Source: Acytostelium subglobosum LB1
Lineage: Eukaryota; Evosea; Eumycetozoa; Acytosteliales; Acytosteliaceae
Length of the DNA: 64,000 nucleotides
Reading direction: 5' to 3'
Assembly (NCBI RefSeq): GCF_000787575.1
Contig: NW_012236523.1
Span: 559,854 to 623,853 of the forward strand
Part shown: positions 9,743 to 33,971 of the stretch, in pieces
How the letters are laid out: each line of letters begins with the position of its first letter
Position numbering within the stretch: position 1 is the first letter of the stretch
Position numbers and translations under genes: made by a program
The notes under the pieces: generated by a model
Databases searched by the model: none
Told to the model about the DNA's origin: nothing
The model's input: the letters and a program-made list of their open reading frames with translations, nothing else

Positions 9743-10468
9743 ATGGAATTGAGGAGAAACAATAACTTACAAAAGACTCTCCATGTACAAAAAAGAAAGT
9801 CTTCCACGCCAACAGGGAAGGCCTCGACTCCAATAAAGTGGTCAACACAAAGGAAACATAAGAAATGGAATCAATCAGCCACTGCCATTCAGAATCGATC
9901 AAATATACCAACAACCTCAAAATATAATGGGAGTAGCTTGAAGCCGATCTATAACATGGTTGACGACGGGGTTTCGCCTATCAAGTGGCGTGTTGGTGTA
10001 ACTCATACCTCCACTTTGGTGCCCCGAATCATTGACTCCGACGATGTTTCCAAGAAGATGAAGTATATACGCAGGGCTGAGGTAGTTCAGTATCTTCAAC
10101 TTGTGGATGATGTCAGAGAGCACTGCCAAAAGTACGTCGCAAAGTTGGCTAGCTTGACGCTCTTATTTGTTTGCACGCCTGCCGAGGCATACAAGCGTGA
10201 CGTCGAAAGTAGACCTGCAGCAGAGTTTCACTATTGGTTCAAGGAGCATGGGAAGTCCTCTGGCCTTCACAAGTTTAATCCAGACGATGGCAGTGTTGTT
10301 ACTTGGATCCAGTTGGTGGAGATCATCGTACCACACAAGTCCCTTCTCCAATTCGCCGCAGCTGTCATTAACTACAAGTACCTGTGCCAGATGCGTATTG
10401 GTGGTACGGTCGATTCTTGGAATGAGCTTAAGATGCTTATCATCAATAGGTTTGCCAACACCCATTAG
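9743..10468 (+). CDS. orphan basic protein, unknown function
   Basis: Single open frame of 241 aa from ATG 9743 to TAG 10466-10468, with no visible intron. The first 80 residues are rich in Lys, Arg, Thr, Ser and Asn and look disordered and nuclear-type (KRKSSTPTGKASTPIKW). The rest is ordered: a helical segment (YIRRAEVVQYLQLVDDVREH), then KYVAKLASLTLLFVCTPAEA and a Trp-containing C-terminal part. No signal peptide or membrane helix is convincing. It lies just outside the right TIR of the neighbouring element. About 25 bases of its coding sequence (near 9887-9912) recur with two mismatches just downstream of its stop (10478-10503), with a weaker second match further on. I do not recognise the family. 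Confidence 0.5.
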   Translation: MELRRNNNLQKTLHVQKRKSSTPTGKASTPIKWSTQRKHKKWNQSATAIQNRSNIPTTSKYNGSSLKPIYNMVDDGVSPIKWRVGVTHTSTLVPRIIDSDDVSKKMKYIRRAEVVQYLQLVDDVREHCQKYVAKLASLTLLFVCTPAEAYKRDVESRPAAEFHYWFKEHGKSSGLHKFNPDDGSVVTWIQLVEIIVPHKSLLQFAAAVINYKYLCQMRIGGTVDSWNELKMLIINRFANTH

Positions 10469-10571: not shown

Positions 10572-12196
10572 ATGATGTCAGACAACAACAACAACAATAA
10601 TAATAATAATAATGATGATGATAATGATGAAGTGATATCAATGATGTGTGAGAAGCATAAGAAGAAGGAGAAGGTCATTTGTTGGACTTGCAAGATGTCG
10701 ATGTGCACTGTGAGTATGTCTAATCAGAGAGGTCATGATATGAGTCATGTTGATCACATCAAGGAGTGTTTGATGAAGAAGGAGTATGATGGATTGTGGT
10801 GCATGCCAAGGTTGAATCATCTCTGGAAGACACTTCAACAGTGCGTTGAGTCGTATCAATCATTGGAACAGACACACAAGGAGGTGAGTGATCACTTTGA
10901 GCAACTGTTCAAACTGTTGATGGCACAGGAGCACAAGATCAAGACACCAATCAATGTTCAAATGTCACACATTCAATCAACAAATAACAACATCATCGAT
11001 GAGATCAATGATCTCAATCACATCCTCAACATGTCACATCAAACAGATAGCAACAGCAACCAAGCCAACATGGTTCATGATGTATCTGAAGTGATTGGAT
11101 CAATCCTATCATGTTCAACGATCAATCAGTTCATCAGCAAATTGTCATCAACTCAATCACAACAATCAGAGAAGGATACAGACGCAATCAATGACAATGA
11201 ACTGATGATGATGATCAAGAATCACAACCAACACATGAATGACGTGCAGTATGATCTCACCAAACTCCAAACACAATCAATGAAGAATGAGATGATCAAG
11301 TTGAATGACACCAAGAATAAGATCAAATCATGTCTTGGTCTCATTGAACAAGTTCAACAACCAGCAGTTCAACACCCGTTCAACAATCACATCAATATGA
11401 TTGACGATGGATTCTCATTGCTCTCACTGGACACATTCAAATGGACAACGCACAAGAAGGTATTGCCAAGGAGGGTGGACCATTTCTCAACAGAATGTGT
11501 TTACGCTCGTGGTCACATCTACCAGTTTGGAGGTAGCTCGTCACCAACACGATTCTCGAATCTCACTTGCCGATAATAGCAGTTATGAAGCAGACATAGT
11601 TGGAGTCAGTGGCGGCTCCGATATATCATTATGCTTCGATGGTGACAAGTATATCTATCTCGTCGGTGGAACCAAAGGCACGACTCTTGTGGATCGCTTC
11701 AACATTGACACTCTCCAATTCGAGCAATTTGGCAAGTTACAGTTACCATTTAACGAAGGATATGGAAGCGTGCACCACCACAACAACAAGCTCTACATTG
11801 TTGAATCGATGTTGGATGAAATCAATTTCAGATATTATGGTTACAGAATCAAGACGTTCGACTTAGTTGACCCGCACCAATGATATCCTGATTGAGATAA
11901 AAGGCCTAGATTATGTTCAGGGCGCATGTTTCGATGGCATTGACAACATATTCATCAAGACCAGTGATTCATTCCGACAAGTCACACTGTCCAGCAAGCA
12001 GATGACTGTCCTTGAGCAGTGTCCAGTATATACAAATGGCATAATTATGTATGATGGAACACTTGGTGTCATCTTCAGCATTGGTGGAAAGAATGACAAT
12101 TATCAATATTCAATTCAAGCTAACAAGTGGACATTGATCAATGACAATGATAGGATAAGGAGTCGCCTAAGACCTTTCTTTTTGATACGTGATTAG
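10572..12196 (+). pseudogene. B-box zinc finger / kelch-like family, copy 1, two frameshifts
   Basis: Starts MMSDNN with an Asn/Asp run, then a B-box (C-x2-H-x8-C-x2-C), a coiled-coil region (HKEVSDHFEQLFKLLMAQEH), an Asn/Gln-rich linker, and kelch-like repeats (GHIYQFGG, KYIYLVGG, VDRFNIDT). Comparison with copy 2 at 13703-15319 shows a 2-base deletion near 11555 and a 1-base insertion near 11867 (an extra A in GACTTAGTTG). These split it into three frames, 10572-11576, about 11570-11883 and about 11867-12196. One B-box zinc ligand is also changed: CTVS where other copies have CTVC. The 2-base deletion and lost ligand argue for real decay rather than sequencing error. B-box/kelch proteins of this kind often act as ubiquitin-related adaptors, but no such role is shown here. 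Confidence 0.75.
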
Positions 12197-12580
12197 TCAG
12201 TTATAGTGAGTGGCTTTGTTGTTGAACCATAAGTTGCCAACCCATACATACCTTCAAATATAATTAATCATCATGATTGATACAAAGATACACTCACTGA
12301 CTAAATCAATTATTAATAATTAATATTAAAAGTTTGTAATAATTTAACGATAAATGCCCAACTATCCATCAATACAATCAGATCATCATCACCCACATTC
12401 ATCAGTTCCCAGGGTCCTTCCCATTTACAATCAATCAAAAAAGAATATCATTATTACATTTATATTTATAAGGTGCGTACGATGATAGCATTATGATCAT
12501 CATCATTCATTATCATCAATTTATAGATCAACTCACTTACACTCAATCAAGAATATAGCAATAGACTAGATAATCTTGAT
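12197..12580. other. intergenic, promoter of the type A small gene
   Basis: AT-rich, about 380 bp, with ATCATCATC and AATCAATC tracts. A similar stretch (AAGTTCCAGAGTC, CATTTACAAAC, GTACGA) precedes the second type A gene at 15390-15530, so it is part of the duplicated unit. No gene seen. Confidence 0.5.
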
Positions 12581-12898
12581 ATGACTACTAGGTTAGTATT
12601 GACATTATCAGCCTATCTTTTATGTTTATATCTAGCGTACATTGTCCCGAAAGTGACCGATTGCTACTCATCGGTTAGGGAGATTAATAGATCAAATGAA
12701 ACAAGAACATGTTCATCATTCGCAAGCATAAAAGACATTCAAAGTGAAAGACGAGATATAAATGATATGGTCGCTTCATATGATATGAAAGCTCAATGTA
12801 ATATGCTGATCATAGATTCCTTTCAATATCTTTGTTCGCTCATATTCGTTCCAACATTTTTTATTTATGTCGGATCACAAAGAATCGCCACTCAATAA
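12581..12898 (+). CDS. small cysteine-containing membrane protein, type A, copy 1
   Basis: 105 aa from ATG 12581. A hydrophobic N-terminal segment (LVLTLSAYLLCLYLAYIVP) is a signal anchor or signal peptide. Next is a roughly 50-residue polar loop with three Cys that are conserved in all four members (DCYSS, RTCSSFASI, KAQC). A C-terminal hydrophobic segment (YLCSLIFVPTFFIYVG) follows. Shared pattern: P, then C after 4-6 residues, then R-x-C-[ST]-S-[IF]-A, then a Cys after a helical stretch ending in K. It is closest to 15536-15865 (KVTDCYSS versus KVIDCYSS). I do not recognise the family. Repeated pairing with B-box/kelch genes suggests co-duplication and perhaps linked function. Confidence 0.6.
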   Translation: MTTRLVLTLSAYLLCLYLAYIVPKVTDCYSSVREINRSNETRTCSSFASIKDIQSERRDINDMVASYDMKAQCNMLIIDSFQYLCSLIFVPTFFIYVGSQRIATQ

Positions 12899-13241
12899 AG
12901 CACAGATACTCAATAGAAGATGAGACAGGAACTGACTGGCTCAAGAGACATAGGCTATTGATTCATTCGATTAACATTATCCACATGTAGACTCGTGTCT
13001 GGACATTGAGATGAAGAGCCTCAGTTAAAATCCCGGGATTGGAACCCAAAAATTAGCTTCACAAAAATGCCTGGGGTTGTCGTGGACCTTGAATGTTTGA
13101 AGTTCATTCCCTCAATTACATTGACTATTAATCAATCAATCAATCAAACATGTACGTTATATAACAATCATTATTACATTATCAATATATACACTCACTG
13201 ACTCAATCCAATCTATTATAAAGTATTTTATATATTATATT
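12899..13241. other. intergenic within the duplicated module
   Basis: About 340 bp. It contains a hairpin-prone GGGATTGGAACCC segment at 13031-13050 and a CAATCAATCAATC tract at 13132-13147. The corresponding region before 16276 is partly similar. No gene seen; a tRNA was considered and rejected. Confidence 0.5.
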
Positions 13242-13574
13242 ATGTCAAAGTTATTGTACACAGTAATAGCAACCATATTTCTATGTTATCTAATGTTCAT
13301 TATCCCGATAGCGAATGAATGTGACTCCATGCTAAAGGAATCTAAGGATCGTTTGAATGTAACAAGATTATGTACATCAATTGCTGGTGTCACAGAGGAT
13401 AAAGATGAGATACTAAAACAAGAGATACATGATAGTATCCTTACGTTTAATCTTCGAATGAAGTGTCACAAAATGTCCAATGAGCCCTTGTTAAGTCTCA
13501 TTAAGATCCTTGGCCTTGCTTTGTTTATTCAATACGCACAACAAAGAAACGCCCCTCAAGCTCAAACTCAATAA
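13242..13574 (+). CDS. small cysteine-containing membrane protein, type B, copy 1
   Basis: 110 aa from ATG 13242. N-terminal hydrophobic segment (LYTVIATIFLCYLMFIIPI), a polar loop with three Cys (NECDSM, TRLCTSIAGV, RMKCHKM) aligned with the type A genes, and a weakly hydrophobic C-terminal end followed by a Gln-rich tail (QAQTQ). It is closest to the protein at 16276-16587: both begin MSKLL and share the LNxTRxC[ST]SIAGV core and a QEI-D-I helix. An N-x-T sequon lies in the loop (NVT), as expected if the loop is extracellular. Unknown family. Confidence 0.6.
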   Translation: MSKLLYTVIATIFLCYLMFIIPIANECDSMLKESKDRLNVTRLCTSIAGVTEDKDEILKQEIHDSILTFNLRMKCHKMSNEPLLSLIKILGLALFIQYAQQRNAPQAQTQ

Positions 13575-13702
13575 AGCACTGTACTAAAATGATGTTCACT
13601 CAACGACGTGAAGACTCACACACTCATTAACATTCGTTCGTTCATTCAAATTCATTCAATGTTGTAATAACATAGACAGAGATAAATATACATACATAGG
13701 TG

Positions 13703-15319
13703 ATGATGTCAGACATCAACAACAATATTAATAATAATAATAATAATGTTAATAGATCAATGATATGTCAGAAGCATAAGAAGAAGGAGAAGGTCATTTG
13801 TTGGACATGCAAGTTGACGATGTGCACTGTTTGTGTGTCCGATCACAGTGGACATGAGATGAGTCATGTTGATCACATCAAGAAGTGTTTGATGAAGAAG
13901 GAATATGATGGATTGTGGTGCATGCCAAGGTTGAATCATCTCTGGAGGACACTTCAGCAGTGTGTTGAGTCATATCAATCATTGGAGGAGACACACAAAG
14001 AGGTCAGTGATCACTTTGAACAACTGTTCAAACTGTTGATGGCACAGGAACACAAGATCAAGATACCAATCAATGTTCAAATGTCACACATTCAATCACT
14101 ATCAACAACATCATCAATGAGATCAGCGATGTCAATCACATCCTCAACATGTCACATCCAATTGATAACAACAACAACAAAGTTAACGATGACCAGGATG
14201 TATCTGAAGTGATTGGATCAATCAAATCATGCTCAACGATCAATCAGTTCATCAACACATTGTCATCAATTCAATCACAACAATCAGACAAAGATACAGA
14301 CACAATCAACGACAATGAACTGATGATGATGATAAAGAATCACAATCAACTCATGAATGATGTGCAGTATGATCTCACCAAACTCCCACTCACCTCCAAA
14401 CACAATCAATGAAGAATGAGATGATCAAGTTGAATGACACCAAGAATAAGATCAAATCATGTCTTGGTCTGATTGAACAAGTTCAACAACCAGCAGTTCA
14501 ACACCAATTCAACAATCACATCATCAATATGATTGACAATGGATACTCTGTACTCTCATTGGACACATTCAAATGGACATCGCACAGGAATGTATTGCCT
14601 AGGAAGGTGGACCATAGTTCAACAGCAACAGTTTACATTCGTGGCCACATCTACCAGTTTGGAGGTCACACCTCACCAAAACGATACACTCGTATCTCAC
14701 TTGCCGATAATAAGTGTCATGATGCCAACATTGTTGGAGTCAGTGGTGGCTCCTATATATCAACATGCTTCGATGGTGACAAGTATATCTATCTCGTTGG
14801 TGGACTCGGCGACATAAAGAGACAGAAAAGCGTGGATCGCTTCAACATTGACACTCTCCAATTCGAGCATGTTGGCGAGTTACTAACACCATTTACCGAT
14901 GGTTTGCACCACCACAACAACAAACTCTACCTGGTTGAATCGATGGTTGATGGTAACAATGTTACTTGTATTGGTTACAGAATCAAGACGTTCGACTTGT
15001 TGACCCGAACCAATGAAATACTGATGGAGATAAAATGCACTGAATACATTGAAAGCGCATGTTTCGATGGCATTGACAACTTCTTTGTAAAGACCAATGA
15101 ATTCCATCGAGTCACACTGTCAAGCAAACTGGTGACCGTGCTTGAGCAGTGTCCATCATTTGGCAACTTAATGTATGATGCAACAGCTGATGGTGTCATC
15201 TTCAGCATTGGTGGAAAGAACAAAATCATCTTTATTCAATTCAAGATAACAAATGGACATTGATCAAGGACAATGATATGATGAAGAGTCGTTCAAAGCC
15301 TTTATGTTTAATACATTAG
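13703..15319 (+). pseudogene. B-box zinc finger / kelch-like family, copy 2, at least three frameshifts
   Basis: Full-length by alignment to the intact minus-strand gene at 23421-25022: Asn-rich start, complete B-box (ICQKHKKKEKVICWTCK then CTVCVSDHSGH), coiled coil, linker and kelch repeats (GHIYQFGG, KYIYLVGG). Breaks relative to copy 1: a 1-base difference near 14097, an 11-base insertion near 14390 (CACTCACCTCC), and a 1-base loss near 15228. The open frames are 13703-14212, about 14149-14412 and 14409-15263, with the last residues up to TAG 15317-15319. The upstream ATG at 13700 adds one Met only. It is head-to-tail with copy 1 and followed by a type A small gene, as copy 1 is. Confidence 0.75.
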
Positions 15320-15535
15320 TAATTGTGCTTTGTTGTTGAACCATAAATGCCCATCCATTCATACTTTCAAATCGTCGTCTTCTTTACCCAAATTCAAGCA
15401 AGTTCCAGAGTCTTTCCCTCATTTACAAACTAATCAATCAAACATATATAATAGGTTCGTACGAACAATGATCATCATCAATATAAAGATCAACTCACTG
15501 ATGCTCAATCAAGATAAGCCATCAATACATGATAT

Positions 15536-15865
15536 ATGTCAAAGACAGTGAACACAATCTTGTTCATATTTATATGTTATCTAGCGTACAGTGTCCCGAA
15601 AGTGATCGATTGTTACTCATCGGCTGGGGAGATTAATAGTTTGAAAGAAACTAGATCATGTACATCATTCGCAAGTATAGAAGATATAGAAAGAGAACGG
15701 CGACATATAAATGATATGGCCGTTTCTTATAGTATGAAAGTAGATTGTTATAAGATGGCCATAGAGCCCTTTGAATATCTCTGTTTGCTCATTATGATTC
15801 CACTGTTAATTCATATGTGTTTTACCAGACCACAAAGCAACGCAACTCATACTCATACTCAATAA
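15536..15865 (+). CDS. small cysteine-containing membrane protein, type A, copy 2
   Basis: 109 aa from ATG 15536. N-terminal hydrophobic segment (TILFIFICYLAYSVP), loop with the three family Cys (VIDCYSS, TRSCTSFASI, VDCYKM) and C-terminal hydrophobic segment (YLCLLIMIPLLIHMCF), ending in a Thr/His/Gln tail. Clear paralogue of 12581-12898 (shared KV-DCYSS, ETR-C-SFASI and INDM blocks). Both reading frames stay open despite many substitutions, which suggests they are maintained as proteins while the neighbouring B-box/kelch copies decay. Confidence 0.6.
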   Translation: MSKTVNTILFIFICYLAYSVPKVIDCYSSAGEINSLKETRSCTSFASIEDIERERRHINDMAVSYSMKVDCYKMAIEPFEYLCLLIMIPLLIHMCFTRPQSNATHTHTQ

Positions 15866-16275
15866 AGCATAGATACGACATGTATAGAAGATAATATAAT
15901 GACGACGACAAAGAATATGATCATCATGTTAAAACAAGACACAGGAACTCATGGGGCAAGAGACATAAGTGGTTGTTATTTCTATTGTTGGACAAAAACA
16001 TTCATATGTTTTATTAGTTGTCCATATAGTTGGAGACTGACTGGAGTATTAGGTCCACTTTTGAAACCCATAAATGATCTTCACCTTGGTGCCTGGGGTG
16101 GTGGACCTTGCATGTTTGAGTGACCTTCCCTCACTTACACTGACAATCAGTTAGTTAATCAACCAATCAATCAATCAATCAAACATACGTACGTTAACAA
16201 TCATAAAAACATGATCATCATCAACTGTCACTGACACTCAATCAAGTAAATTAATTACGTTATTAATATCATAAG
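15866..16275. other. intergenic within the duplicated module
   Basis: About 410 bp between type A and type B copy 2. It includes the stretch resembling 13035-13150 and a CAATCAATCAATC tract at about 16166-16182. A 74-codon open frame at 15899-16123 has no counterpart in the first unit and is not supported as a gene. Confidence 0.5.
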
Positions 16276-16587
16276 ATGTCAAAGTTATTGTTCAGAGTAG
16301 TAGTAAGCATAATTTTATGTCATCTAATATACATTATCCCGAAAATGTTTGAATGTAACTCAATGCGTCAGGAATTTGAGACAAGTTTGAATGCAACTAG
16401 ATCATGTTCATCAATCGCTGGTGTAAATGATACAGAGATACATAGACAAGAGATATATGATGGAATAATTACGATTGATATTCAAATCAAATGTTATAAG
16501 TTGATCTCAACGGCCTGTAAAAGTGCTTCTTTAACGAGTTTGATATTCAACCTTTCATTATTTTCAAAAGATAGAGTCACAAAATAA
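16276..16587 (+). CDS. small cysteine-containing membrane protein, type B, copy 2
   Basis: 103 aa from ATG 16276. N-terminal hydrophobic segment (RVVVSIILCHLIYIIP), loop with three Cys (FECNSM, TRSCSSIAGV, IKCYKL) and two N-x-[ST] sites (NATR and NDTE), then a moderately hydrophobic C-terminal segment (SLTSLIFNLSLF). Closest to 13242-13574. It sits immediately upstream of the deleted B-box/kelch stub at 16639, as the first type B gene precedes copy 2. Unknown family. Confidence 0.6.
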   Translation: MSKLLFRVVVSIILCHLIYIIPKMFECNSMRQEFETSLNATRSCSSIAGVNDTEIHRQEIYDGIITIDIQIKCYKLISTACKSASLTSLIFNLSLFSKDRVTK

Positions 16588-16638
16588 GAAATGATCTTGC
16601 CATTAAACTTCAGCCATTTATTCAGTTATAAGATAGAA

Positions 16639-16837
16639 ATGATGTCAGACAACAACACTAATAATGACAATGATGAAGATTGGTCAATGATATGTCAGAG
16701 GCATAAGAAGAAGGAGAAGTTCATTTGGAAAGAACGACAACTATCGGTACTCAATTCAAGATAACAAGTGGACATTGATCAAGGACAATGATAGGATGAA
16801 GAGTCGCTCAGCCCCTTTATGTTTAATACGAGATTAG
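16639..16837 (+). pseudogene. B-box/kelch family stub with large internal deletion
   Basis: Begins exactly like the full-length members (MMSDNN, Asn/Asp run, SMICQRHKKKEKFIW), then jumps at about 16719 straight to the 3' end of the gene (KNDNYRYSIQDNKWTLIKDN in another frame), ending at the family C-terminus with stop TAG 16835-16837. About 1.4 kb, covering most of the B-box, the coiled coil and the kelch repeats, is missing. It is the remnant of a third module unit. Confidence 0.8.
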
Positions 16838-17004: not shown

Positions 17005-20000
17005 CTACTTGGTCCTGGTCTTGCGGGTGGACTTCTTTGAAGCAATCTCCTCCTCGGCCTCCTCTGCCTCCTTGGCCCTTCTGGTCCTCGAGCTGACTGA
17101 CTTGAGAATCTCGGCGTCGTATCTGCTGATGCTTGCCTTTGATTTCCTTGGCTTCACATCCTCGACCATCTCCTCCTCCTCGACTTCCTCGACATGGGCT
17201 ACCTTGCTCTTGCTGGCGGTCTTCTTTGATGATGACTTCTTCTTTGGCTTGTCTTCCTCGACTTCATCCTGTTCGTCCATCTCAACTACCTTTGACTTTG
17301 AAGACTTGGCAGACTTGGTCGACTTGGTGGTCTTCTCGATGACCTCCTCCTGCTCCTCCTCTTCCACAATCTTCTTTGACTTGGATGACTTTGAGCTCTT
17401 GGTTGGCTTGACCTCTGGCTCTGGGGCGACCTCCTCTACTGTCTTCCTGGAAGCCTTGGACCTAGTAGCCTTGGCTTTGGTTGCCACTTCTACTTCAGGT
17501 TCGGGCTCAGCCACGACCTCTACTGTTCTCTTGGCCTTGGTCTTGGTAGACTTGGTTGGCACCACCACTTCTGGCTCGACAGTTCTGGCCTTCTTGGACG
17601 ACCTTGATGACTTTGTCTCAACAACCTCGGACTCCTCCTCTTCATCGCGCTTCGATCTCTTGAGTGAAGTGGACTTCTTGGAGCGTTTCTTGGTCTCGGG
17701 CTCAACCTCCTCNACCTCCACCTCAGGCTCTGGCTCNGGCTCGNCNACCTTCTTGGACTTCTTNGTGGTGGTGGACTTCCTGCCCTTTGCCTCTATGACA
17801 GGCTCTGGCTCAACTACCTCCTCTTCCACCTCTGGTTCTGGCTCGACCATCTTCTTTGACTTCTTGGTAGCTGTGGACTTCCTGGACTTGGATACGGCAA
17901 CCTCCTCCTCAACAGTCTCTTGCTCTTCCACCTCAGGCTCTGGCTCTGGCTCAACAACAGCCTTCTTTGATCTTCTGGATAAGGACTTTCTTGGTTTGGT
18001 TACCTCTACGATTGGCTCCTCAACCTCCTCTTCCAACTCAGGCTCTGGCTCGGGCTCGACCACCTTCTTGGACTTCTTGGTGGCAGTTGACTTCCTGGAC
18101 TTGGAGGTTGGTACGACAACCTCCTCTTCCTCCTCCTGTACAGTCTCTTGCTCCTCCTCAGGCTCTGGCTCTGGCTCGACAACAGCCTTCTTAGATCTTA
18201 AAGACTTTCTGGCCTTTGACTTGACCTCTACGATTGGCTCCTCGACCTCCTCCTCGACCTCAGGCTCTGGCTCGGGCTCGACCACCTTTTTGGACTTCTT
18301 GGTAGTGGTAGACTTCCTGGACTTAGGTGGTTCAATGACAACCTCCTCTTGCTCCTCGACCTGCTCCTCAACCTCAGGCTCGACCACCTTCTTAGACTTC
18401 TTTGTCTTCTTGGTGACGACCTGATCTTGGATGGTCTCATCCTCCTCCACATTCTTTCTCTTCTTGTGAGATGGAGCAGGTGACTTGGCAGGAGTCATAG
18501 TCCTATCAGGTGTTGACATCACTGGGGTCTGGACCTTGACTGGAGTCTGAGTCTTGACAGGGGTCTTGGCTGGAGTCTGGACCTTGGTTGGAGTCTGCTC
18601 CTTGACTGGAGTCTTGACAGGGGTCTTGGCTGGAGTCTGTGCCTTAGCTGGGGTCTGTACCTTGGCTGGGGTCTGTACCTTGGCTGGGGTCTGTGCCTTG
18701 GCTGGGGTCTGCACCTTGGCTGGAGTCTGCACCTTGGCTGGGGTTTGAGCCTTGGCTGGAGTTTGTGACTTGGAGGGAGTGGAGAACTTGTCTGGTGTTT
18801 GAGGGACATCGTATTGGACTTGTTCCTCGTCGACCATTTCATAGTCCTCGGCAATATCCTCATCACCTTCGACTTCCTCCTCCTCCTCCTCCTCGATGAG
18901 CTCATCCTCCTCCTCGAACTCTTGAGCAGTCTCCTCATCTTGCTGCATCAACTCGTCGGCCTCAGCCTCCTGGTCGTCCATGGCCTCCTCTTGTTCGGCA
19001 TCCTCGACATCAGCCTCAGCGGCGAGAGCATTCTTTTCTTGTTCTTCATCAGATTCAAGGGCTTCGGCGTCCTCCTCCTCCTCCTCCTCCTCGACTTGAT
19101 CGTCTTGGTCGACATCATCTTCGGCAAGCTCGTCAGCGTCCTCTTGTTCTTCGAGGGCAAGCTCGTCTTCCTCGGCCTGGAGCTCCTCGTCTTGCTCGAC
19201 TTCTGCTTGTTCGACTTCATCTTGCTCGTCGTCTTGCTCAACAAGTTCCTCGTCGGCGGTTAGGGCTTCATCGTCCTCCTCCTCAACTTGATCGTCTTGG
19301 TCGGCGACTTCAGCATCCTCCTCGTCTTCCTCGATCAGTTGGTTGACGGCATCAGTGTCCTCCTCCTCGACGGCGAGCTCGGCTTCAGCATCCTCCTCGA
19401 GTTGTTCTTGATCGGCGACTTCGGCGTCCTCCTCATCAATCATCTCGTCCTCGTCTTCGGCATCGAGTTGGTCTTGGTCGGCTGCTTCAGTGTCCACCTC
19501 CTCTTCCTCGACTTGATCGTCTTGGTCAGCGGCTTCAGCTTCTTCGGCGGCCAGCTCATCTTCCTCAACAGCCAGCTCGGCCTCGTCTTCTTCGGCGTCG
19601 ACTTGCTCGTCTTGGTCATCGGCTTCAGCAACCTCATCCTCCTCAACGGCAAACTCGGCCTCATCATCGTCGACTTGGTCGTCTTGATCGGCAACTTCGG
19701 CGTCCTCTTGGTCTTCGACGGCAAACTCCTGCTCTTGATCGGCGGCCTCAGCGTCCTCTTGGTCTTCTTCGGTAGCAAGCTCGGCCTCGTCTTCATCGAC
19801 TTGGTCCTCTTGATCGGCGGCCTCAACGTCCTCCTCTTCCTCGAGGGCTAGCTCCTCATCGTCTTCCTCGACTTGATCGTCTTGGTCAGCGGCTTCAACA
19901 GCCAGCTCAGCCTCATCCTCTTCAGCGTCGACTTGGTCATCTTGATCGGCGGCTTCATCGTCTTCTTGAGCCTCTTCAAGATCCTCCTCGACCTCGTCGG

Positions 20001-22185: not shown

Positions 22186-22863
22186 TGTTTTGTTGTTATT
22201 GTTGTTATATTATTGATTGATATGATTGAATTGATTGAATAGGGTAAATGAATTAAAGTATATAATCTATTATTAAATATATTATATAAAGATGTGAAGA
22301 AGAGATGATGCTGATGCTAATGCTGATGATAAACTAAACTAGGAGATATATACTTAAATATGAACCCTGCTGCTGTTGTTGCTATCAGTCTGACTGTAGT
22401 TGACTATTATTATTATTGTTGTTGTTTATAAACTTCTTAACGTTGACAAGGCGATAGTTATATATACATTCAATGTTGTTTGTATGTGTGAAGAAGTATT
22501 ACTTTGTTATGTATGTATTTGTAAAGTATAATAATGAAGTAATAAATGTTGGTTGGTTGGTTGGATCGATGGATGGAGAGAGAGAGAAAGGAGGGAAGTC
22601 CAACTTCACACCCCCTACCTCATCACCTAAATTGAGTTCCCTCCAAAATCATCACTATTCAAATTCCGTTAAACTCAATAAATTTGAAATTTGGCGCGAA
22701 TTTTTAAATAGTTAATAAAAATTACCCTATGATTCAAATAATTATTAATACAATTAATATTACTATATTTAGTGTTTCCACAAGATGTCATTTCAATTAA
22801 AATAATTATTAATGACTTGATTGATTGAATGATTGAATGTATTGTGGATGGTTTAATCTAGAA
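22186..22863. other. intergenic, AT-rich promoter region
   Basis: About 680 bp upstream of the FHA gene and downstream of the minus-strand B-box/kelch cluster. It holds TTATTATTATTGTTGTTG and AT-only stretches and a GGTTGGTTGGATCGATGGATGG run. No convincing coding frame or tRNA. Confidence 0.5.
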
Positions 22864-23400
22864 TCAAACATTGAGATGAGAATTTTGAATTGGTTCTATC
22901 TTGTTGGTCAATGTCTTTGATAAATGTCCACTTGTTATCTTGGATTGAGTATCGATAGTTTTCATTTCCAAAGATGCTGTATATTCCAAATGTTGGATCA
23001 TACTCCAGCTTTCCATTTCTGGACATTTTTCCAACTTGGTAACCAACTTGATTGTCAATGATACACGGATGAATTCATCGGGCATCTTGAAATAGATGTT
23101 GTCAATACGGTCGAAGCAACTGCCTGTCAATGTATTCTTCAAGAAGCTGTCGAGGAGAACGACTGTGGCCCCCGTCTGCAGGTTGAACGAGAAGAGTTTA
23201 TAGCCCTTATAGGAACTGACCCTCTCGTACTCATTGACCAAGTAGAGCATGTGGTTGTGGTAGTATATTCCATACGATGGATCATACTCCAGCTGACCAT
23301 TGTAATGTTGATGGACTGGTATCTCTGACTAAACTTTCGAATGATAGTAAATATAGGTTTCATTTGTTTGCTTAGGTGTTCCCTCAACTTCCCAGGGAAG
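22864..23400 (-). pseudogene. B-box/kelch family, chimeric kelch fragment
   Basis: On the minus strand a piece of the family C-terminal region (NGQLEYDPSYGIY, about 23300-23263) is joined directly to an internal kelch piece (HNHMLYLVNEYERVSSYKG) that then runs to a family-like C-terminus at 22864 (IEPIQNSHLNV). The frame changes several times. The order C-terminus then middle cannot come from a simple truncation, so this is a recombination product. No B-box is present. Confidence 0.7.
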
Positions 23401-23420
23401 GAACGGGACTTTATTTATAC

Positions 23421-25022
23421 TCAATTATAACTGCTAAGCAAACAGAATGGGGCCACTCGAGTCTTCATCCTGCCATTGTCCTTGATCAATACCCACTTGT
23501 CATTCTGAACAGAGTATTGATAGTTGTCATTCTTTCCACCTATGCTGAAGATTCTACCTAGTGTTGGGTCATACAATAAATTGTTATTTGATGCTGGACA
23601 CTTAGCTAGTATGGTCTTTTGCTTGCTTGACAGAGTGATCCGATGGAATGCACTAGAGGTCTTGATGTAGATGTTATCAATGCCATCGAAACAATCGTTT
23701 TGATATTGACTACCATTAGAAGTTACCTCTAGCAGGAAGACTTGGGCGTGTGTCAACAAGTCGAACGTCTTGACTTGGTAGCCACTATCATTCAGTTTAT
23801 TGACCATGTAGAGTTTGTTGTTCTTGTGGCAGTGCAAGCCACCTTTATCATTGACAAGTGGAGTTTGTAGCTGACAAACATGTTCGAATTGGTGAGTGTC
23901 AATGTTGAAGCGATCCACGCGATTCAATCTCTTGTAGTCCATTATTCCACCAACGAGATAGATGTACTTATCACCATCAAAGCATGATGATATATAGTAG
24001 CCACCATTGACTCCAACAATTTTGCCATCATAACAGCTTTTGTCAGCCAGTGACAATCGAATGTAGCGAGTTGGTGTGAAGTCACCTCCAAACTGGTAGA
24101 TATGGCCGCGGGCGTAAACAGTTGATAGTGTAGGGTTGTCCACCCTCATCGACAGTACATTCTGGAATACATTCTGGTACGGCTTCCATTTGAATGTGTC
24201 CAATGAGAATACACAGTATCCTTTGTCCAGCAGATTGATAATGTCATGTTTGAATGAGTGCTGAACTGCTGGTCGTTGAACTTTCTCAATGATACCAAGA
24301 CATGATTTGATCTTATCCTTGGCGTCATTCAACTTGATTATCTCATCTTTCATTGATTTAGCTTTGAATTGAGTGATATCATACTTCACATCATTCATGA
24401 GTTGATTGTGATTCTTGATCATCGTCATCAGTTCATTGTCACTGAGTGCATTGATACTGTCTGATTGTTGTGATTGAGTTAATGACAATGTGATGATGAA
24501 CTGATTGATCGTTGAACATGATTCGATTGATCCAATTACTTTGGAGACATCTTGGTCCTCTTTGACTTTGCTCTCATTGTTACTATCTGTTGGTAGTGTC
24601 ATGTTGAGGATGTGATTGAGATCATTGATCTCATTGATGATGTTGTTGATAGTTGATTGAATGTGTGACATTTGAACATTGATTGGTGTCTTGATCTTGT
24701 GTTCCTGTGCCATCAACAGTTTGAACAGTTGTTCAAAGTGATCACTGACCTCTTTGTGTGTCTCCTCCAATGATTGATATGATTGAACACATTGTTGAAG
24801 TGTCTTCCAGAGATGATTCAACCTTGGCATGCACCACAATCCATCATACTCCTTCTTCATCAAACATTCCTTAATATGATCAACATGACTCATGTTGTGA
24901 CCATTGTGATTGGACACACAAACAGTGCACATCGACAACTTACAAGTCCAACAAATGAACCTCTCCTTCCTATTATGCTTCTTACATATCATTGATCTCC
25001 CGTCATCATTATTTGTATCCAT
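23421..25022 (-). CDS. B-box zinc finger / kelch-like protein, intact copy
   Basis: Single open frame of 533 aa, ATG at 25022. Residues about 10-50 are a complete B-box (ICKKHNRKERFICWTCK, CTVCVSNHNGHNMSHVD). Residues 70-130 are a predicted coiled coil (QQCVQSYQSLEETHKEVSD). Residues 130-250 are Asn/Ser-rich helices. From about 270 on there are kelch-like blades (GHIYQFGG, KYIYLVGG, NRVDRFNIDT, KIFSIGG-type). This is the only copy in the window with no disruption, so it serves as the reference for the others. B-box plus kelch suggests protein-protein recognition, but there is no RING, so ubiquitin ligase activity is not indicated. Its start is 73 bp from the divergent gene at 25096, so they share a promoter region. 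Confidence 0.8.
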   Translation of the reverse strand: MDTNNDDGRSMICKKHNRKERFICWTCKLSMCTVCVSNHNGHNMSHVDHIKECLMKKEYDGLWCMPRLNHLWKTLQQCVQSYQSLEETHKEVSDHFEQLFKLLMAQEHKIKTPINVQMSHIQSTINNIINEINDLNHILNMTLPTDSNNESKVKEDQDVSKVIGSIESCSTINQFIITLSLTQSQQSDSINALSDNELMTMIKNHNQLMNDVKYDITQFKAKSMKDEIIKLNDAKDKIKSCLGIIEKVQRPAVQHSFKHDIINLLDKGYCVFSLDTFKWKPYQNVFQNVLSMRVDNPTLSTVYARGHIYQFGGDFTPTRYIRLSLADKSCYDGKIVGVNGGYYISSCFDGDKYIYLVGGIMDYKRLNRVDRFNIDTHQFEHVCQLQTPLVNDKGGLHCHKNNKLYMVNKLNDSGYQVKTFDLLTHAQVFLLEVTSNGSQYQNDCFDGIDNIYIKTSSAFHRITLSSKQKTILAKCPASNNNLLYDPTLGRIFSIGGKNDNYQYSVQNDKWVLIKDNGRMKTRVAPFCLLSSYN

Positions 25023-25095
25023 TGTTTATTTATTATTAATTTTTTATTATAAGAATGGTGAATGATATGAGGGCTGTCCTCAAACTTGAATTCAA

Positions 25096-26504
25096 ATGAA
25101 TGAATCTAATGATCAAATTAATGATATAAATACAGATACACCAATGCTCAACCCATTACTAATAAGCTCAATCATTAGGTTGATGCGCACATCTGATGAT
25201 GTTGACAAGAATTGGTCTAGGTCATTGTCATTGGTCAGCTGGTCAATTCATTCAATGATCAGATCGCTGAACACACAGCTGATAATAAATGTCCATTCTC
25301 AATCTAAATGTGATCATGACAGCGACTTTGACGCTAGACCCGAAGACTATGATGACATTGCAATGATTGATTCATTGTATGATGTCACCAAACATCTCGA
25401 CACCAAGTACTCATTGCATCTCACTCAACACATCACCTCGATCATACTGGTCGGTGATGACCACGATGAGGAGAGGGAGAGAAAGAGGAGAGAAGAAAGC
25501 AATTCTGGCATACAAGCGAAAGAACTACAGTCATATTCATCAAGTCAACCACTTGATCACAAGAAGGACATTGCCAAGTCTATTTTTACAATCACTAACA
25601 AGTGTGGCCAAAGTCTCAACCAAGTTCAGGACAGCTGGCAACTCTCATTAGGCAATATGCACTGGACCCACATTCAATCGACTCGATGGTGATCAATTAT
25701 CTGTATTCAGGAGCTATCTATTCTTTGATTGATCATATTCCACACGACAACAATCTGATCAAGACATTGGATCTCAGGTTACTAAATCCAAATATATGCT
25801 GTTATCGTGATTACTGTCGGGAGAAAGACGAATATGATTGTCAGCTGGCAAGTGAGCTATTTGGACGTTGCACCAACATCACATCTCTCACAATCTTCGA
25901 TGAATGTGGCGCTGGCCACTCTGGCTACTCATTGTATGCAGTTGGACAAGCCAAGATGTTCTTTAGAGACATGGATCTCTTGATGCACCTCGAATCGCTC
26001 ACTTTTGACTTCTCACCAAGCTGTGGACATGACCATGCGGATATAATGTATGAGGGCGTGGCCAAGACGTTCTATGAGGAGCTCATCCTGTTCATGAGAC
26101 GACGACCATCGCTCCACACATTCATATTCCACAATAGCTTGGAGAGCAATAATGATGCACATCATCAACCCTTCCTTGAATACCTACTCCAAGATGGTTC
26201 GTGTCCAGTTCAACATGTGTCTTTGCGGACATTTTGTCACGTACCATTGCTTGGTCGACAGATTGACACACTAATCCTTATTGGTTGCTATGAGCCTGAC
26301 GATCAACATTTTGACAAACATATGGAGATGTTCATCAACAATCTCAAGACCTGCGTCACCAATATACTTGATCTGTCTGATTTCACTTTCATTCAAGTAT
26401 CCAAAACTGACAATGCACTCATTGATACAATGCTTCAACCTGGAATCTTCCTTGGCAATGTATACAAACATCCAGACCTGAACTATCGCAGATATAATGA
26501 ATGA
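25096..26504 (+). CDS. F-box/LRR-like protein with one frameshift
   Basis: Two overlapping open frames, 25096-25692 and 25602-26504, read as one gene of roughly 465 aa if a single frame change is allowed between about 25620 and 25660. The N-terminus (LNPLLISSIIRLMRTSDDVD, then RSLSLVSWSIHSMI) resembles an F-box. The C-terminal half has LRR-like spacing (TSLTIFDECG, LESLTFDFSPS, IDTLILIGCYEP). Dictyostelids have large families of such F-box/FNIP/LRR proteins, often serving as SCF substrate adaptors. The call rests on pattern only. No intron explains the frame change, so it is a pseudogene or carries a sequencing error. It shares a 73-bp divergent promoter with the intact B-box/kelch gene. Confidence 0.45.
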
Positions 26505-26534
26505 AAGATTAATTAAACATAATGAATGGATCAT

Positions 26535-27682
26535 TTAATCAAGTATCAAACAATGTCCAGAGTATCTTGAATTAGTTCGATCATTTAACCGGTTATTCTC
26601 TAGGATCAATGTCCACTTGTTATCTTGGATTGAGTAGCGATAGTCGTTATGATTATCATAGATGCTGTATATTCCAAACGATGAATCATACTCCAACTTT
26701 CCATTTCTGATTGGACATGGTGCCAGTTTGGTCTCCAACTTGCTGGACAATGATACTCGTATGAATTCCTCATGCATCCTGAAATAGATGTTATCCACGC
26801 CATCGAAACAACAGCCTGTCAATGTATGCCTCAAGAACTTCTCGAGGATAACCAATCTGGCTCCCGTCTTCACGTCGAATGAGAGGAGTCTGTATTCCAT
26901 TGCGCTGGTCCCAACATATTGATTGACCAGGTAGAGTTTGTTGTTGAGGTAGTACGCGTACTTGTTCTCGCATTGGCCTACAAACCCTATTCCTGATTGG
27001 TGGAAGGTACCAACATGGTTGAACTTGAGCGTGTCGATGTTGAAGCGGTCTACACGGTGAAGCACCTTTTGGTACAGACTGCCACCGACCAGATAGATGT
27101 ACTTGCCACCGTCGAAGTTAGCAGATATTGCGTATCCACCATCGATGCCATAGATCTCGCCATTATAGGTTTGAATGTTGTTGTTGTAACTGAGGGCAAC
27201 GCGCGTGAATCTCGCCGGTGATTGAGCTCCGCCAAACATGTAGACATGGCCGCGAGCGTACACCACTGATGTGGTCGGGGGACTGATCTTGGATTGAGTA
27301 TCGATGGTCGGAATTATTATCAAATATGTTGTATAAACCATATAAAGGATCATATTCCAGCTTTCCAGTTTTGATTGGACACCTTTCCAGTCTGGTCAAC
27401 AACTTGCTGGACAATGTGATTCTGGTGAACTCATTGGACGTCTTGTAATAGATGTTGAAGTGTCTTCCAGAGATGATTCAACCTTGGCATGCACCACAAT
27501 CCATCATACTCATTCTTCATCAAACATTCCTTGATGTGATCAACATGACTCATCTCATGTCCACCGTGATTGGACACACAAACAGTGCACATCGACATCT
27601 TGCATGTCCAACAAATGATCTTCTCCTTCTTCTTATGCTTCTGACATATCAATGACCTATCTTCATCATTATTGTCAGCCAT
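26535..27682 (-). pseudogene. B-box/kelch family, three-piece chimera
   Basis: Read on the minus strand: 27682-27460 is a normal N-terminus (MADNNDEDRSLICQKHKKK, complete B-box, to LWKTLQ). It is joined near 27455 to a C-terminal piece (SNEFTRITLSSKLLTRLERC, GKLEYDPLYGLYN, SIQD). Near 27290 this is joined to a mid-gene piece that starts TTSVVYARGHVYMFGG and runs intact through the kelch blades to a C-terminus at 26535 (SGHCLILD). The last piece is an open frame of about 260 aa. The order N, C, middle, C needs at least two unequal recombination or repair events. No single start can express the whole; expression is doubtful. Confidence 0.75.
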
Positions 27683-27796
27683 TCAATATCTATCTCTCAA
27701 AATATCTCTTTGACAAATTGAACAAACGAACGTTGATGAATGAATGCGAAGAACGAGGCCTGGACCACTTTATTGTTCGTAATTACTATCAATCAA

Positions 27797-29388
27797 TCAA
27801 TCGCAAATCATACATAGATTACTGAATCTTTCAATCTTTCGGTCATTGTCATTGATCAATGTCCACTTGTTATCTTTGATTGAGTATTGATGGTTGCTAC
27901 CCTTTCCATAGATGCTGAATATTCCAAATGATGGATCGTACTCCAGCTTACCATACCTGCAAGGACACTTCGCCATCTTGGTCACCAACTTGCTCGACAA
28001 CCTATATCGAATGAATTCATCGTCGGTCTGACATAGATGTTGTCAACGCCATCGAAACAACATGCCCCCGAACTTGATGTCTTGTTGTCGTGCAGAACCT
28101 CAGTGACACCAGTCAGCAGGTCGAACGAGAGGAGCTTGAAGACCATTCCTCTGGCCTCTTCATAGTTATTGACAAGGTATAGCTTGTTGTTATGGTAGTA
28201 CGCGTATTTGTTGTAGCATTCGCCTTCTTTTGGGTATATTCCAACATGATCAAACTTGAGCCTATCGATGTTGAAGCGATCGACGCGGTCCAACACCTGA
28301 TCGTCCAGACTGCCACCGACCAGATAGATGTACTTTTCGCCATCGTAGCATGTCGATATGCAACGTCCACCACTGACACCAACGATCTCGGCATCATAAC
28401 ATTGATTGTTGTCATCGAGTGAGATGCGGGTGTATCTAGTTAATTCGATGCCGCCAAACAGGTATACATGGCCACGTGCGTACACAACTGACGTGGACAT
28501 GGGATTGATCTTCCAGTTTAAGACAATACTGTGGCTTGAACTCCATTTGGATGTCTCCAGCGAGAACAGTGAGAATCCATTGTCGTTCAATGAGATGATG
28601 TGATGGTTGAATGGATGATCGGTCACATGTTGGACAGGCTCAACGAGATCAAAGCATGATTGAATCTTCTCCTTGATTTCATTCACCATGATAATGTCGG
28701 TAATGATCAATTGAGCTTTGAGTTTAGCCATATCATACTGCACATCATCCATGAGATGATTGTGATTCTTGATCATCTTCATCAGTTCATTGTCACTGAG
28801 TGCACTGATACTGTCCGATTGTTGTAATGATTGAGTTGATGACAATGTGTTGATGAACTGATTGATCGTTGAACATGATTGGATCGATTGGATCACTCTT
28901 GGGACGTCCCGATCCTCGTTGTCGTTGCTATCAACTGGATGTGACATGTTGAGGATGTGATTGAGATCATTGATCTCATTGATGATGTCGTTGATTGTTG
29001 ATTGAATGTGGGACATTTGAACATTGATTGGTGTCTTGATCTTGTGTTCCTGTGCCATCAACAGTTTGAACAGTTGTTCAAAGTGATCACTGACCTCCTT
29101 CTGTGTCTCCTCCAACGATTGATATGACTCAACGCACTGTTGAAGTGTCTTCCAGAGATGATCCAACCTTGGCATGCACCACAATCCGTGATACTCCTTC
29201 TTCATCAAACATTCCTTGATGTAATCAACATGACTCATGTTGTGACCATTATGATTGGACACACAAACAGTGCATATCGACAACTTACAAGTCCAACAAA
29301 TGAACTTCTCCTTCTTCTTATGTATCTGACATATCATTGATCTATCTTCATCATCATTATTACTATTACTCCTGTTGTTGTCTGTCAT
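27797..29388 (-). pseudogene. B-box/kelch family copy with a single frameshift
   Basis: Near-full-length member. The family-like start is ATG at 29388 (MTDNNRSNSNNDDEDRSM). An upstream in-frame ATG at 29436 adds 16 unlikely residues. It has a B-box (ICQIHKKKEKFICWTCK, CTVCVSNHNGH), coiled coil, linker and kelch blades (GHVYLFGG, KYIYLVGG). The frame breaks near 28015: one extra base in the AGACCGACG context changes the expected TDDEFIRYRLSSKL into another frame, which stops at 27982. The correct frame resumes and runs to 27797 (PFCL-type end CMICD). With one break only, a sequencing error is possible. Confidence 0.7.
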
Positions 29389-29436
29389 GTATATGTATCT
29401 CTTTACAACTTTAGTGAAAGAACACAAATGAGACAT

Positions 29437-29960
29437 TCATGGTTTGACGTCAACGCACAATTTTGCAAGCTAGCTTGGTCACTCCATTGTTGGTCAATCT
29501 ATATCGGATGAATTCACTCCCGGTCATGACATAGATATGGTCAACGCCATCGAAATGACAGCCTGCCGCTTTTGATACCTTGACGTCGTACAGAACAGCA
29601 GTGACATGCTACGATGGTGACAAGTACATCTATCTGGTCGGTGGCAGTCTGGGCGATACAGTGTTGAACCGTGTGGATCGCTTCAACATCGACACGCTCA
29701 TGTTGGATATATCCGGAAAGGACAAGGCGCTTTCCAAGATCAATATGTGTACTACCTTAACAACATGCTCTACCTTGTCAACAACTACAAAGATGAGGAC
29801 TACAATAATATATTCTACAGGCTGCTGTCATTCGACCTGCAGACTGGCGTCACTGCTGTTCTGTACGAATGTCCACCACTGACGTGGACATGGGATTGAT
29901 CTTCCAGTTTAAGACAATACTGTGGCTTGAATGTCCGAATGAGTTTGTCGGGATTGTCAT
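29437..29960 (-). pseudogene. B-box/kelch family remnant with an inverted internal segment
   Basis: From 29604 down to about 29450 the minus strand encodes a kelch piece (VTAVLYDVKVSKAAGCHFDG then EFIRYRLTN). Positions 29605-29868 encode the adjoining upstream piece on the opposite strand (CYDGDKYIYLVGGSLGDT then YRLLSFDLQTGVTAVLY). Positions about 29880-29935 are again minus-strand and nearly identical to 28490-28545. One block of about 265 bp has thus been flipped in place within a minus-strand copy. No function expected. Confidence 0.75.
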
Positions 29961-33031: not shown

Positions 33032-33971
33032 ATGATGGGGTACAAGAGAAAGAAACAGGCAGAGTTCGATGACTATACCGATGTCTCATTCAAAGAGAAA
33101 TTTGGAGTACATAAAGTCGTAGCCAAACAACTCCTTGAGGACATTAAATTCACCGAGCAACACTGGCTGATGTGGACACTGGACTTCTTGCGAAACTACA
33201 ACTCTTTCAACTATAGCTCGGCACACTTTGGAGTATGTGATAAGAACTTCAGAGAGAAAGTTTGGATGGTGATTGACAGTATCAAACAGCTCAGCATCAA
33301 GGTAAGTAGTCTGTCATATGATTGTCCGTACGGACGGTTCGTGAGCATTAGGCATACATACCAGACTAACATCATCACAGCACCGCACACTTTCAAAGAC
33401 TAAGTTCGACAAAGATAAAGAGAGCCTTCCAGATCATGCCGCAGATCATCCTGAAGCAACTATTGCATTGGCTGTCGACTCCACCTTCTGCGACCTGGAG
33501 ACTAAAGACAATGGATTCTACAACGGTGAGAAGAAGAGGTTTGGTGTGAAGTATGAAGTTGCATGTGTAGTTAGAACTGGAGAAATTGTGTGGGTGTCCG
33601 GACCGCATGGGGCATCCGAGGCTGACGTTGACATTTACAGACAAGGGCTTAAGCAAGAATTGATGGCAATTGACAAGGTCAGGGCAGTCGCTGACAAAGG
33701 ATACCAAGGCGAACCTGACACACTAATCACGCCCTTCAAAAAGAAGCAAGGAGCCATTCACCTCCCCCCAATGGAAAAGATCTACAATGACTGGGTTCAG
33801 TCTATTCGATTCATCATCGAGAATATATTCAGTAGCTACAAACTATTCAATGCATTGAATAGACAATTCCGAGGAACAGTGGACCAGCACCGAGATATCT
33901 TTGATGTAATCACATATATCATCAACCTTGACACAAAATTCAAAATTAATCATATTATAAATAAATCCTAA
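33032..33971 (+). CDS. PIF/Harbinger DDE transposase (DDE_Tnp_4 type)
   Basis: Two exons, 33032-33301 and 33381-33971, joined in phase 0 (GTAAGT donor, CACAG acceptor), give 286 aa. Catalytic triad by position in family motifs: first Asp in LAVDSTFCDLE, second Asp in VADKGYQGEPD, and Glu in RFIIENIFSSYKLF. The usual Gly-x-x-x-D-x-x-x-x block between the Asp residues is present as VSGPHGASEADVDIYR. The N-terminal 90 residues are a helical, likely DNA-binding region. It is somewhat shorter than many Harbinger transposases but has all core motifs and no break. The stop is just before the right TIR. It would cut and paste the element at 3-bp targets together with its SANT-like partner. Confidence 0.88.

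What the first reader, a model, noticed from the sequence alone, without database searches (positions are those of the whole stretch)
10572..16837. Tandem module: B-box/kelch gene plus two paralogous small Cys membrane proteins
The same three genes occur in the same order twice, followed by a stub of the first gene. The two small proteins per unit (type A and type B) share a hydrophobic N-terminal segment, three Cys at matching places and a C-terminal hydrophobic end, but differ strongly otherwise. Both pairs stay open while the adjoining B-box/kelch copies are frameshifted. I know no described family with this pattern. The arrangement resembles a fast-evolving multigene system, such as cell-surface recognition or self/non-self factors, but that is a guess. 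The partner B-box/kelch genes also form a second cluster at 22.8-30 kb without the small genes.
Basis: partly seen in the sequence, partly recalled or inferred. Interest (0 to 1): 0.72.

Follow-up and report, generated by a model that had tools for sequence, protein, structure and literature searches.

The report
Fast-changing small membrane-protein gene pair
A slime mould carries two copies of a pair of small, fast-changing membrane-protein genes with no relatives found elsewhere in its genome; they look like real genes kept in working order, and their B-box/kelch neighbours are probably just the repeats through which they were copied.

Summary
The arrangement is confirmed. K1-A1-B1-K2-A2-B2-K3 stub lie on one strand of a dictyostelid genome (30.73 Mb; it fits Acytostelium subglobosum). 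The A and B proteins (103-110 aa) are paralogues with an N-terminal hydrophobic segment, a polar middle with three invariant Cys, and a C-terminal hydrophobic segment, weaker in B2. tblastn finds four copies, all here. No family matched credibly in Pfam, NCBIfam or PDB. dN/dS is 0.6-1.8 by pair and method, yet plain neutrality is rejected: of 80,000 neutral simulations none kept all four frames open and 2 kept all four Cys; five indels in the alignable coding part are all multiples of three, against 4 of 19 in spacers. So they are probably real genes with a fixed Cys/hydrophobic frame and fast-changing other positions. Against this, they lack the window's usual codon bias. The kelch family gave 84 matched rows; of the 30 kelch loci held, only K1 and K2 adjoin small genes, and both are frameshifted, at different places. 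Kelch genes are best read as the repeats that duplicated the pair. A recognition or conflict role is plausible, unproven.

The parts
10572..12195 (+). K1: B-box/kelch copy, two frameshifts (near 11560 and 11868)
   Evidence: tblastn of the intact paralogue matches in three successive frames; 70% aa over its residues 2-324; no stop within the three main matched pieces
12581..12898 (+). A1: type A small protein with two hydrophobic segments, 105 aa
   Evidence: open frame; paralogue of A2, B1, B2
13107..13120 (+). upstream motif TTCCCTCANTTACA of B1 (same motif at 15414 for A2, 16126 for B2; shorter variant at 12418 for A1)
   Evidence: the motif plus CTCAATC 70-100 nt on occurs 3 times in the whole genome, all here, reversed control 0
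13242..13574 (+). B1: type B small protein, 110 aa
13703..15318 (+). K2: B-box/kelch copy, three frameshifts (near 14098, 14390-14409, 15215)
   Evidence: none at the same place as in K1
15536..15865 (+). A2: type A small protein, 109 aa
   Evidence: dN/dS to A1 0.84-1.10 by NG86 (two versions), LWL85, YN00 and ML
16276..16587 (+). B2: type B small protein, 103 aa, C-terminal tail remodelled
   Evidence: lacks the CTCAATAAAGCA end of the other three
16640..16837 (+). K3: kelch stub, first ~88 nt fused to the last ~110 nt
12891..12902 (+). CTCAATAAAGCA: the TAA stop of A1 lies inside an AATAAA-like 3' end signal (same at 13567 for B1, 15858 for A2)
   Evidence: the reading as a polyadenylation signal is inference
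22862..29696 (-). second kelch cluster without small genes: one intact copy (23421-25022), the rest broken or partial; a short fragment at 29604-29696 matches on the + strand
   Evidence: no relative of A or B there by profile

Best explanation
A and B are real, lineage-restricted genes for small membrane proteins: a short cytosolic N-terminus, a first hydrophobic segment (signal anchor), a lumenal or extracellular middle of about 55 residues with three invariant Cys, a second hydrophobic segment, and a short tail. An ancestral small gene duplicated, with its promoter, into A and B. Later the K-A-B block was duplicated by unequal crossing-over between flanking copies of the abundant B-box/kelch family, and the kelch copies then decayed. 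Selection keeps the frame, the Cys and the hydrophobic segments, while the other positions change at about the neutral rate or faster. Most likely they work at the cell surface or in the endosomal membrane as disulfide-linked dimers (three middle Cys leave one for a partner), in recognition or conflict with other cells or bacteria. Shown here: open-frame structure, paralogy, uniqueness of the locus by tblastn, maintenance beyond neutral expectation with dN/dS near 1, shared upstream motifs, broken kelch copies. Inferred: translation, topology, disulfides, crossing-over, co-expression, function. The confidence given is for real, maintained genes duplicated with the kelch repeats; for the recognition/conflict role alone I would say about 0.25.
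For: Only 4 copies found in 30.73 Mb, all here. dN/dS 0.60-1.83 over the six pairs by the estimates that converged, against 0.27 for the 5' part and 0.64 for the middle part of K1-K2 and 0.34-0.38 for two kelch genes of the second cluster. Neutral tree simulations with each of the four sequences as root: all four frames open in 0 of 80,000 in total, all four Cys kept in 2 of 80,000. An earlier run of 3000 gave 0 and 0, and a strong N-terminal hydrophobic segment kept in all four leaves in 1 of 3000, while 18 invariant non-Met columns are ordinary under neutrality (mean 15.5, P 0.28): the constraint sits on a few sites. Indels: 5 of 5 multiples of three, against 3 of 16 in two spacers (P 0.003) or 4 of 19 with the third, short spacer (P 0.003); two indels in the unalignable B tail were left out, and with them it is 5 of 7 (P 0.026-0.028). 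The other five frames hold 4-13 stops each. An N-glycosylation sequon stands at the same place, just before the invariant TR.C, in 3 of 4. dS of K1-K2 (0.22-0.25) and A1-A2 (0.31) are similar, which fits one duplication.
Against: Codon usage does not look like that of other genes of the window: frame-1 score -0.13 to -0.29, against +0.19 to +0.36 for eight of the nine other genes scored (six of them used for training) and +0.04 for the ninth; frame 1 is the best forward frame only in A2. No expression data. The mean dN/dS is compatible with neutrality: every bootstrap interval for the full-length pairs includes 1. B1-B2 dS over the whole gene is 0.55, higher than for A1-A2 and K1-K2; leaving out the tail block it is about 0.32 by my own sum. 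The B2 tail is remodelled and its second hydrophobic segment weak. A2 lacks the sequon in the middle region. No structure could be predicted.
Confidence: 0.6

Rival explanations
1. The four ORFs are non-coding or dead: chance open frames carried along by the kelch duplication and evolving neutrally.
For: dN/dS near 1; AT-rich composition and no usual codon bias; identity hardly above that of the spacers (67-75% against 64-71%).
Against: Simulated neutral histories keep all frames open in 0 of 80,000 and all Cys in 2 of 80,000; indel phase; a shuffled background gives 4 such ORFs in 0 of 2000.
Confidence: 0.08
2. Young genes born de novo from intergenic DNA in this lineage, with a weak membrane-related function and no conflict role.
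For: Single locus, no relatives in the libraries searched, intergenic-like composition, short length.
Against: Strict retention of four Cys across both types suggests an established fold. Absence of relatives may reflect only fast change and the lack of other dictyostelid sequences here.
Confidence: 0.25
3. Kelch + A + B is a functional three-gene unit, the B-box/kelch protein being the cytosolic reader of the two membrane proteins.
For: Same order and strand twice; all four copies of A and B lie between kelch copies.
Against: Both adjoining kelch copies are frameshifted, at different places. Kelch genes are in large excess, and 28 of the 30 kelch loci held have no relative of A or B within 1.5 kb, the other two being K1 and K2. 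Selection regimes differ.
Confidence: 0.07

Closest known systems
TgrB1/TgrC1 allorecognition genes of Dictyostelium discoideum
   Same: Two membrane-protein genes that work as a pair (abstract start of PMC11088635 in a search listing) and lie in a local hotspot of duplication and rearrangement (abstract of PMC12324515).
   Different: Tgr proteins are large glycoproteins with IPT/TIG domains (recalled); A and B are 103-110 aa with no Pfam match at E<=1. Polymorphism and cell-contact function are untested here.
Dictyostelid B-box family expansions ('Zinc finger, B-box domain and FNIP repeat-containing protein', OG5 126643)
   Same: The neighbouring genes have a B-box and a high copy number. A Table 2 row seen in a passage of PMC4334915 lists 381 members in A. 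subglobosum against 241 in D. discoideum.
   Different: The genes here carry kelch, not FNIP, matches, and A and B show no match to that family.
Saposin-like amoebapores and ponticulin-like surface proteins of amoebae (recalled)
   Same: Small, Cys-bearing, membrane-related proteins.
   Different: No Pfam match at E<=1 for any of the four. The C-terminal hydrophobic stretch is followed by a polar tail, unlike a GPI signal (recalled rule).

Membership tests
B-box/kelch family (K1, K2, K3) | B-box zinc finger plus kelch repeats | tested here: met
   Intact relatives reach the Pfam cut-off for zf-B_box and Kelch_6 (proteins 6 and 7). K1's open part only reaches sub-threshold B-box and kelch hits; K2 and K3 were not scanned. 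K1 and K2 align to the intact relative along nearly its whole length, K3 at its two ends.
Tgr (TgrB1/TgrC1) | IPT/TIG domains in a large extracellular region (recalled) | tested here: not met
   0 Pfam families at E<=1 for A1, A2, B1, B2; 103-110 aa
Allorecognition system in the functional sense | strain polymorphism and matching-dependent cell interaction | not testable with these tools
   one genome only
Any family with a solved structure | profile match to PDB sequences | tested here: not met
   profile of the four: two matches at E<=10, both ribosomal protein L32 at E 1.4
Any NCBIfam family | match at the curated cut-off | tested here: not met
   only A2 has a line, cystathionine gamma-lyase, E 0.15, 10.9 bits against a cut-off of 634; the other three none at E<=1
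Two-segment membrane protein | two membrane-spanning hydrophobic segments | tested here: inconclusive
   hydropathy 2.06-2.61 for the first segment in all four; second segment 1.74-2.19 in three, 1.18 in B2; no topology predictor at hand
Protein-coding gene under selection | frame kept beyond neutral expectation | tested here: met
   but codon bias not met

The most novel reading that the evidence does not exclude
A and B are the two halves of an undescribed, very fast-evolving recognition or toxin/protection pair of small disulfide-linked membrane proteins in an acellular-stalk social amoeba: a compact counterpart to the Tgr system, spread and remodelled by the kelch repeats around it.
Probability: 0.15. 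Interest if true: 0.75.

Novelty: new member of a known kind. Interest (0 to 1): 0.4.

Why it matters
If the genes are real, they are a clean case of proteins whose frame and Cys are kept while most residues change at about the neutral rate, with neighbouring decayed genes of the same duplication as an internal control. If they prove to be surface recognition or conflict factors, they would give a simple two-gene handle on self/non-self or competition in dictyostelids without a cellular stalk.

Tried and rejected
A weak hit for A1 at C54:501313 (E 0.005, three stops) was looked at in sequence and judged chance. A hit at C35 (E 0.24) with the consensus query was not pursued. Rfam over 9000-31000 gave nothing at gathering scores. 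Scans of viral and prokaryote contigs with the profile found no relative (69 and 80 pattern matches, none confirmed). A joint-exon reading of A and B was considered and dropped because each has its own start and upstream motif and three of four their own 3' signal; introns were not modelled. Two ML dN/dS values (A1-B1 0.08 and A2-B2 0.27, with dS 7.8 and 13.9) were set aside as non-converged; that script then stopped with an error before the comparisons with L006, which were not repeated. Papers: four searches on B-box/kelch or small membrane proteins in dictyostelids listed no paper whose title or abstract start described such a pair (searches listed none at all; one search listed 10; one search listed 9). 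A further one, on social amoeba kelch expansion (9 listed), was no help.
Full report
Setting. The window is G000:C47:559854-623853 of a 30.73 Mb genome in 56 contigs. Genes of dictyostelid type, the large B-box family, and the genome size and window composition (44.7% G+C) point to a dictyostelid. PMC4334915 (passages read) gives 30.9 Mbp and 55.0% A+T for Acytostelium subglobosum, against 66-78% A+T for three other dictyostelids in the same table, with no value for D. purpureum; the identification is an inference, and that assembly (106 supercontigs) is not the one held here. Only the gene at 6766 was tested for, and met, the Dicty_CTDC repeat.

Observation. The order K1-A1-B1-K2-A2-B2-K3 stub is as described. 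Compared segment by segment, the two units are 86.8% identical in kelch, 74.7% in A, 67.4% in B, and 70.5, 64.8 and 63.5% in the three spacers, the last over only 52 aligned bases; the sequence before K1 does not match that before K2 (45.9%). So the duplicated unit begins at the kelch gene and ends in the next kelch copy, as expected if kelch repeats mediated it (inference). K1 has two frameshifts and K2 three, at different places; K3 has lost its middle. The assembly has 6 N in 9000-31000, and 76 of the 84 kelch rows have no internal stop by my count, so sequencing error is not a ready explanation, though not excluded.

The small genes. A1, B1, A2 and B2 encode 105, 110, 109 and 103 residues. 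There are 19 invariant columns, among them four Cys (A1 positions 15, 28, 44, 73), P23, T41-R42 and D62; 92 columns are free of gaps. Ten columns are fixed differences between A and B. All four start with a strong hydrophobic segment; a second lies near the C-terminus and is weaker in B2. A potential N-glycosylation site stands at the same place in A1, B1 and B2 but not in A2. The upstream regions of all four can be aligned (mean column identity 64%, with long gaps), and the firmer evidence is a motif: TTCCCTCANTTACA followed 70-100 nt later by CTCAATC occurs three times in the genome, all here; A1 has a shorter variant. Three of four end in CTCAATAAAGCA, so that the TAA stop lies inside an AATAAA.

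Copy number. tblastn with A2, B1, A1 and a consensus finds these four and nothing credible elsewhere; B2 alone was not used as a query, and the tool does not join exons, so split copies could be missed. The first unit's non-kelch block as DNA matches only itself and unit 2. The kelch query gave 84 matched rows, a few being pieces of one gene, and the tool calls such counts lower bounds. The best 30 rows are held with 1.5 kb flanks. A profile search of all open frames of 25 or more codons in the 56 records then held (window, these loci and others, many overlapping, 319,155 bases) finds strong matches in 20 records, all at this locus; among the 30 kelch loci only L008 (K1) and L029 (K2) have them, and the best other score is E 0.07 in L012, apart from a 25-residue cut piece of A1 in L029. 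The other 54 kelch rows were not examined at the flanks by profile; the single-protein searches cover them.

Selection. dN/dS (NG86): A1-A2 1.02 (bootstrap 0.57-2.01), B1-B2 0.68 (0.41-1.15), A against B 0.86-1.39; kelch K1-K2 0.27 (0.12-0.64) in the 5' part and 0.64 (0.34-1.23) in the middle part. Leaving out the B tail, my own sum of the two other blocks gives about 0.9 for B1-B2. Over all pairs and methods the range is 0.60-1.83, apart from two ML runs that did not converge. An average near 1 could mean no constraint, so I simulated it. With a substitution spectrum from the spacers, a single copy taken to the distance of a pair stays open in 0.6-2.9% of runs. On a four-leaf tree no run of 80,000 kept all four frames and two kept all four Cys, although 18 or more invariant non-Met columns are unremarkable (P 0.28 in 3000 runs, without indels, so over more columns than the 92 of the real alignment). 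The tree used distances near those and an extant sequence as root. Its differences came out at 0.254 for A1-A2 (observed 0.256), 0.298 for B1-B2 (observed 0.329) and 0.387 for A-B (observed 0.349-0.425), so it is close for most pairs and too divergent only for A2-B1. The locus was picked because the frames are open, a bias that these figures do not correct for. The pattern is a small set of fixed sites in a fast-changing background. Positive selection itself is not shown: every bootstrap interval for the full-length small-gene pairs includes 1.

Against a normal gene. Codon usage is unlike that of eight of nine other genes scored in the window. This fits either very young genes or AT-rich fast-evolving ones, and it is the main reason why confidence is not higher.

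Function. With no relatives, structure or expression, function rests on anatomy: small, two hydrophobic segments, three middle Cys, fast change, A/B pairs. I favour a surface or endosomal recognition/conflict role, at low confidence. The kelch neighbours are best seen as passengers and as the substrate for duplication.

Literature. Seen: passages of PMC4334915, passages of PMC5114724, the outline and abstract of PMC12324515, and search listings. No paper was read whole.

Noticed in passing
window 9743-10468 +: A 241-aa ORF directly before K1, with no Pfam match at E<=1 and no second copy found in the genome; its codon score is only weakly positive.
   Followed up: partly
window 22862-29696: The second kelch cluster holds one intact gene; the others are broken or composite, so local decay is general here.
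   Followed up: partly
window 33032-33971 +: Two ORFs that look like pieces of a DDE-type transposase (recalled resemblance, not tested).
   Followed up: no
window 51670-63924 -: A single 4084-aa open frame that resembles giant AAA+ RNF213-like proteins (recalled, not tested).
   Followed up: no
window 17005-21513 -: A 1502-aa frame of acidic and lysine/proline-rich repeats with a few N in the assembly.
   Followed up: no
G000:C47:540660-542249: A kelch gene 69% identical to the intact one of the window lies about 18 kb before the window; no relative of A or B was found in 520001-559853 by profile.
   Followed up: partly
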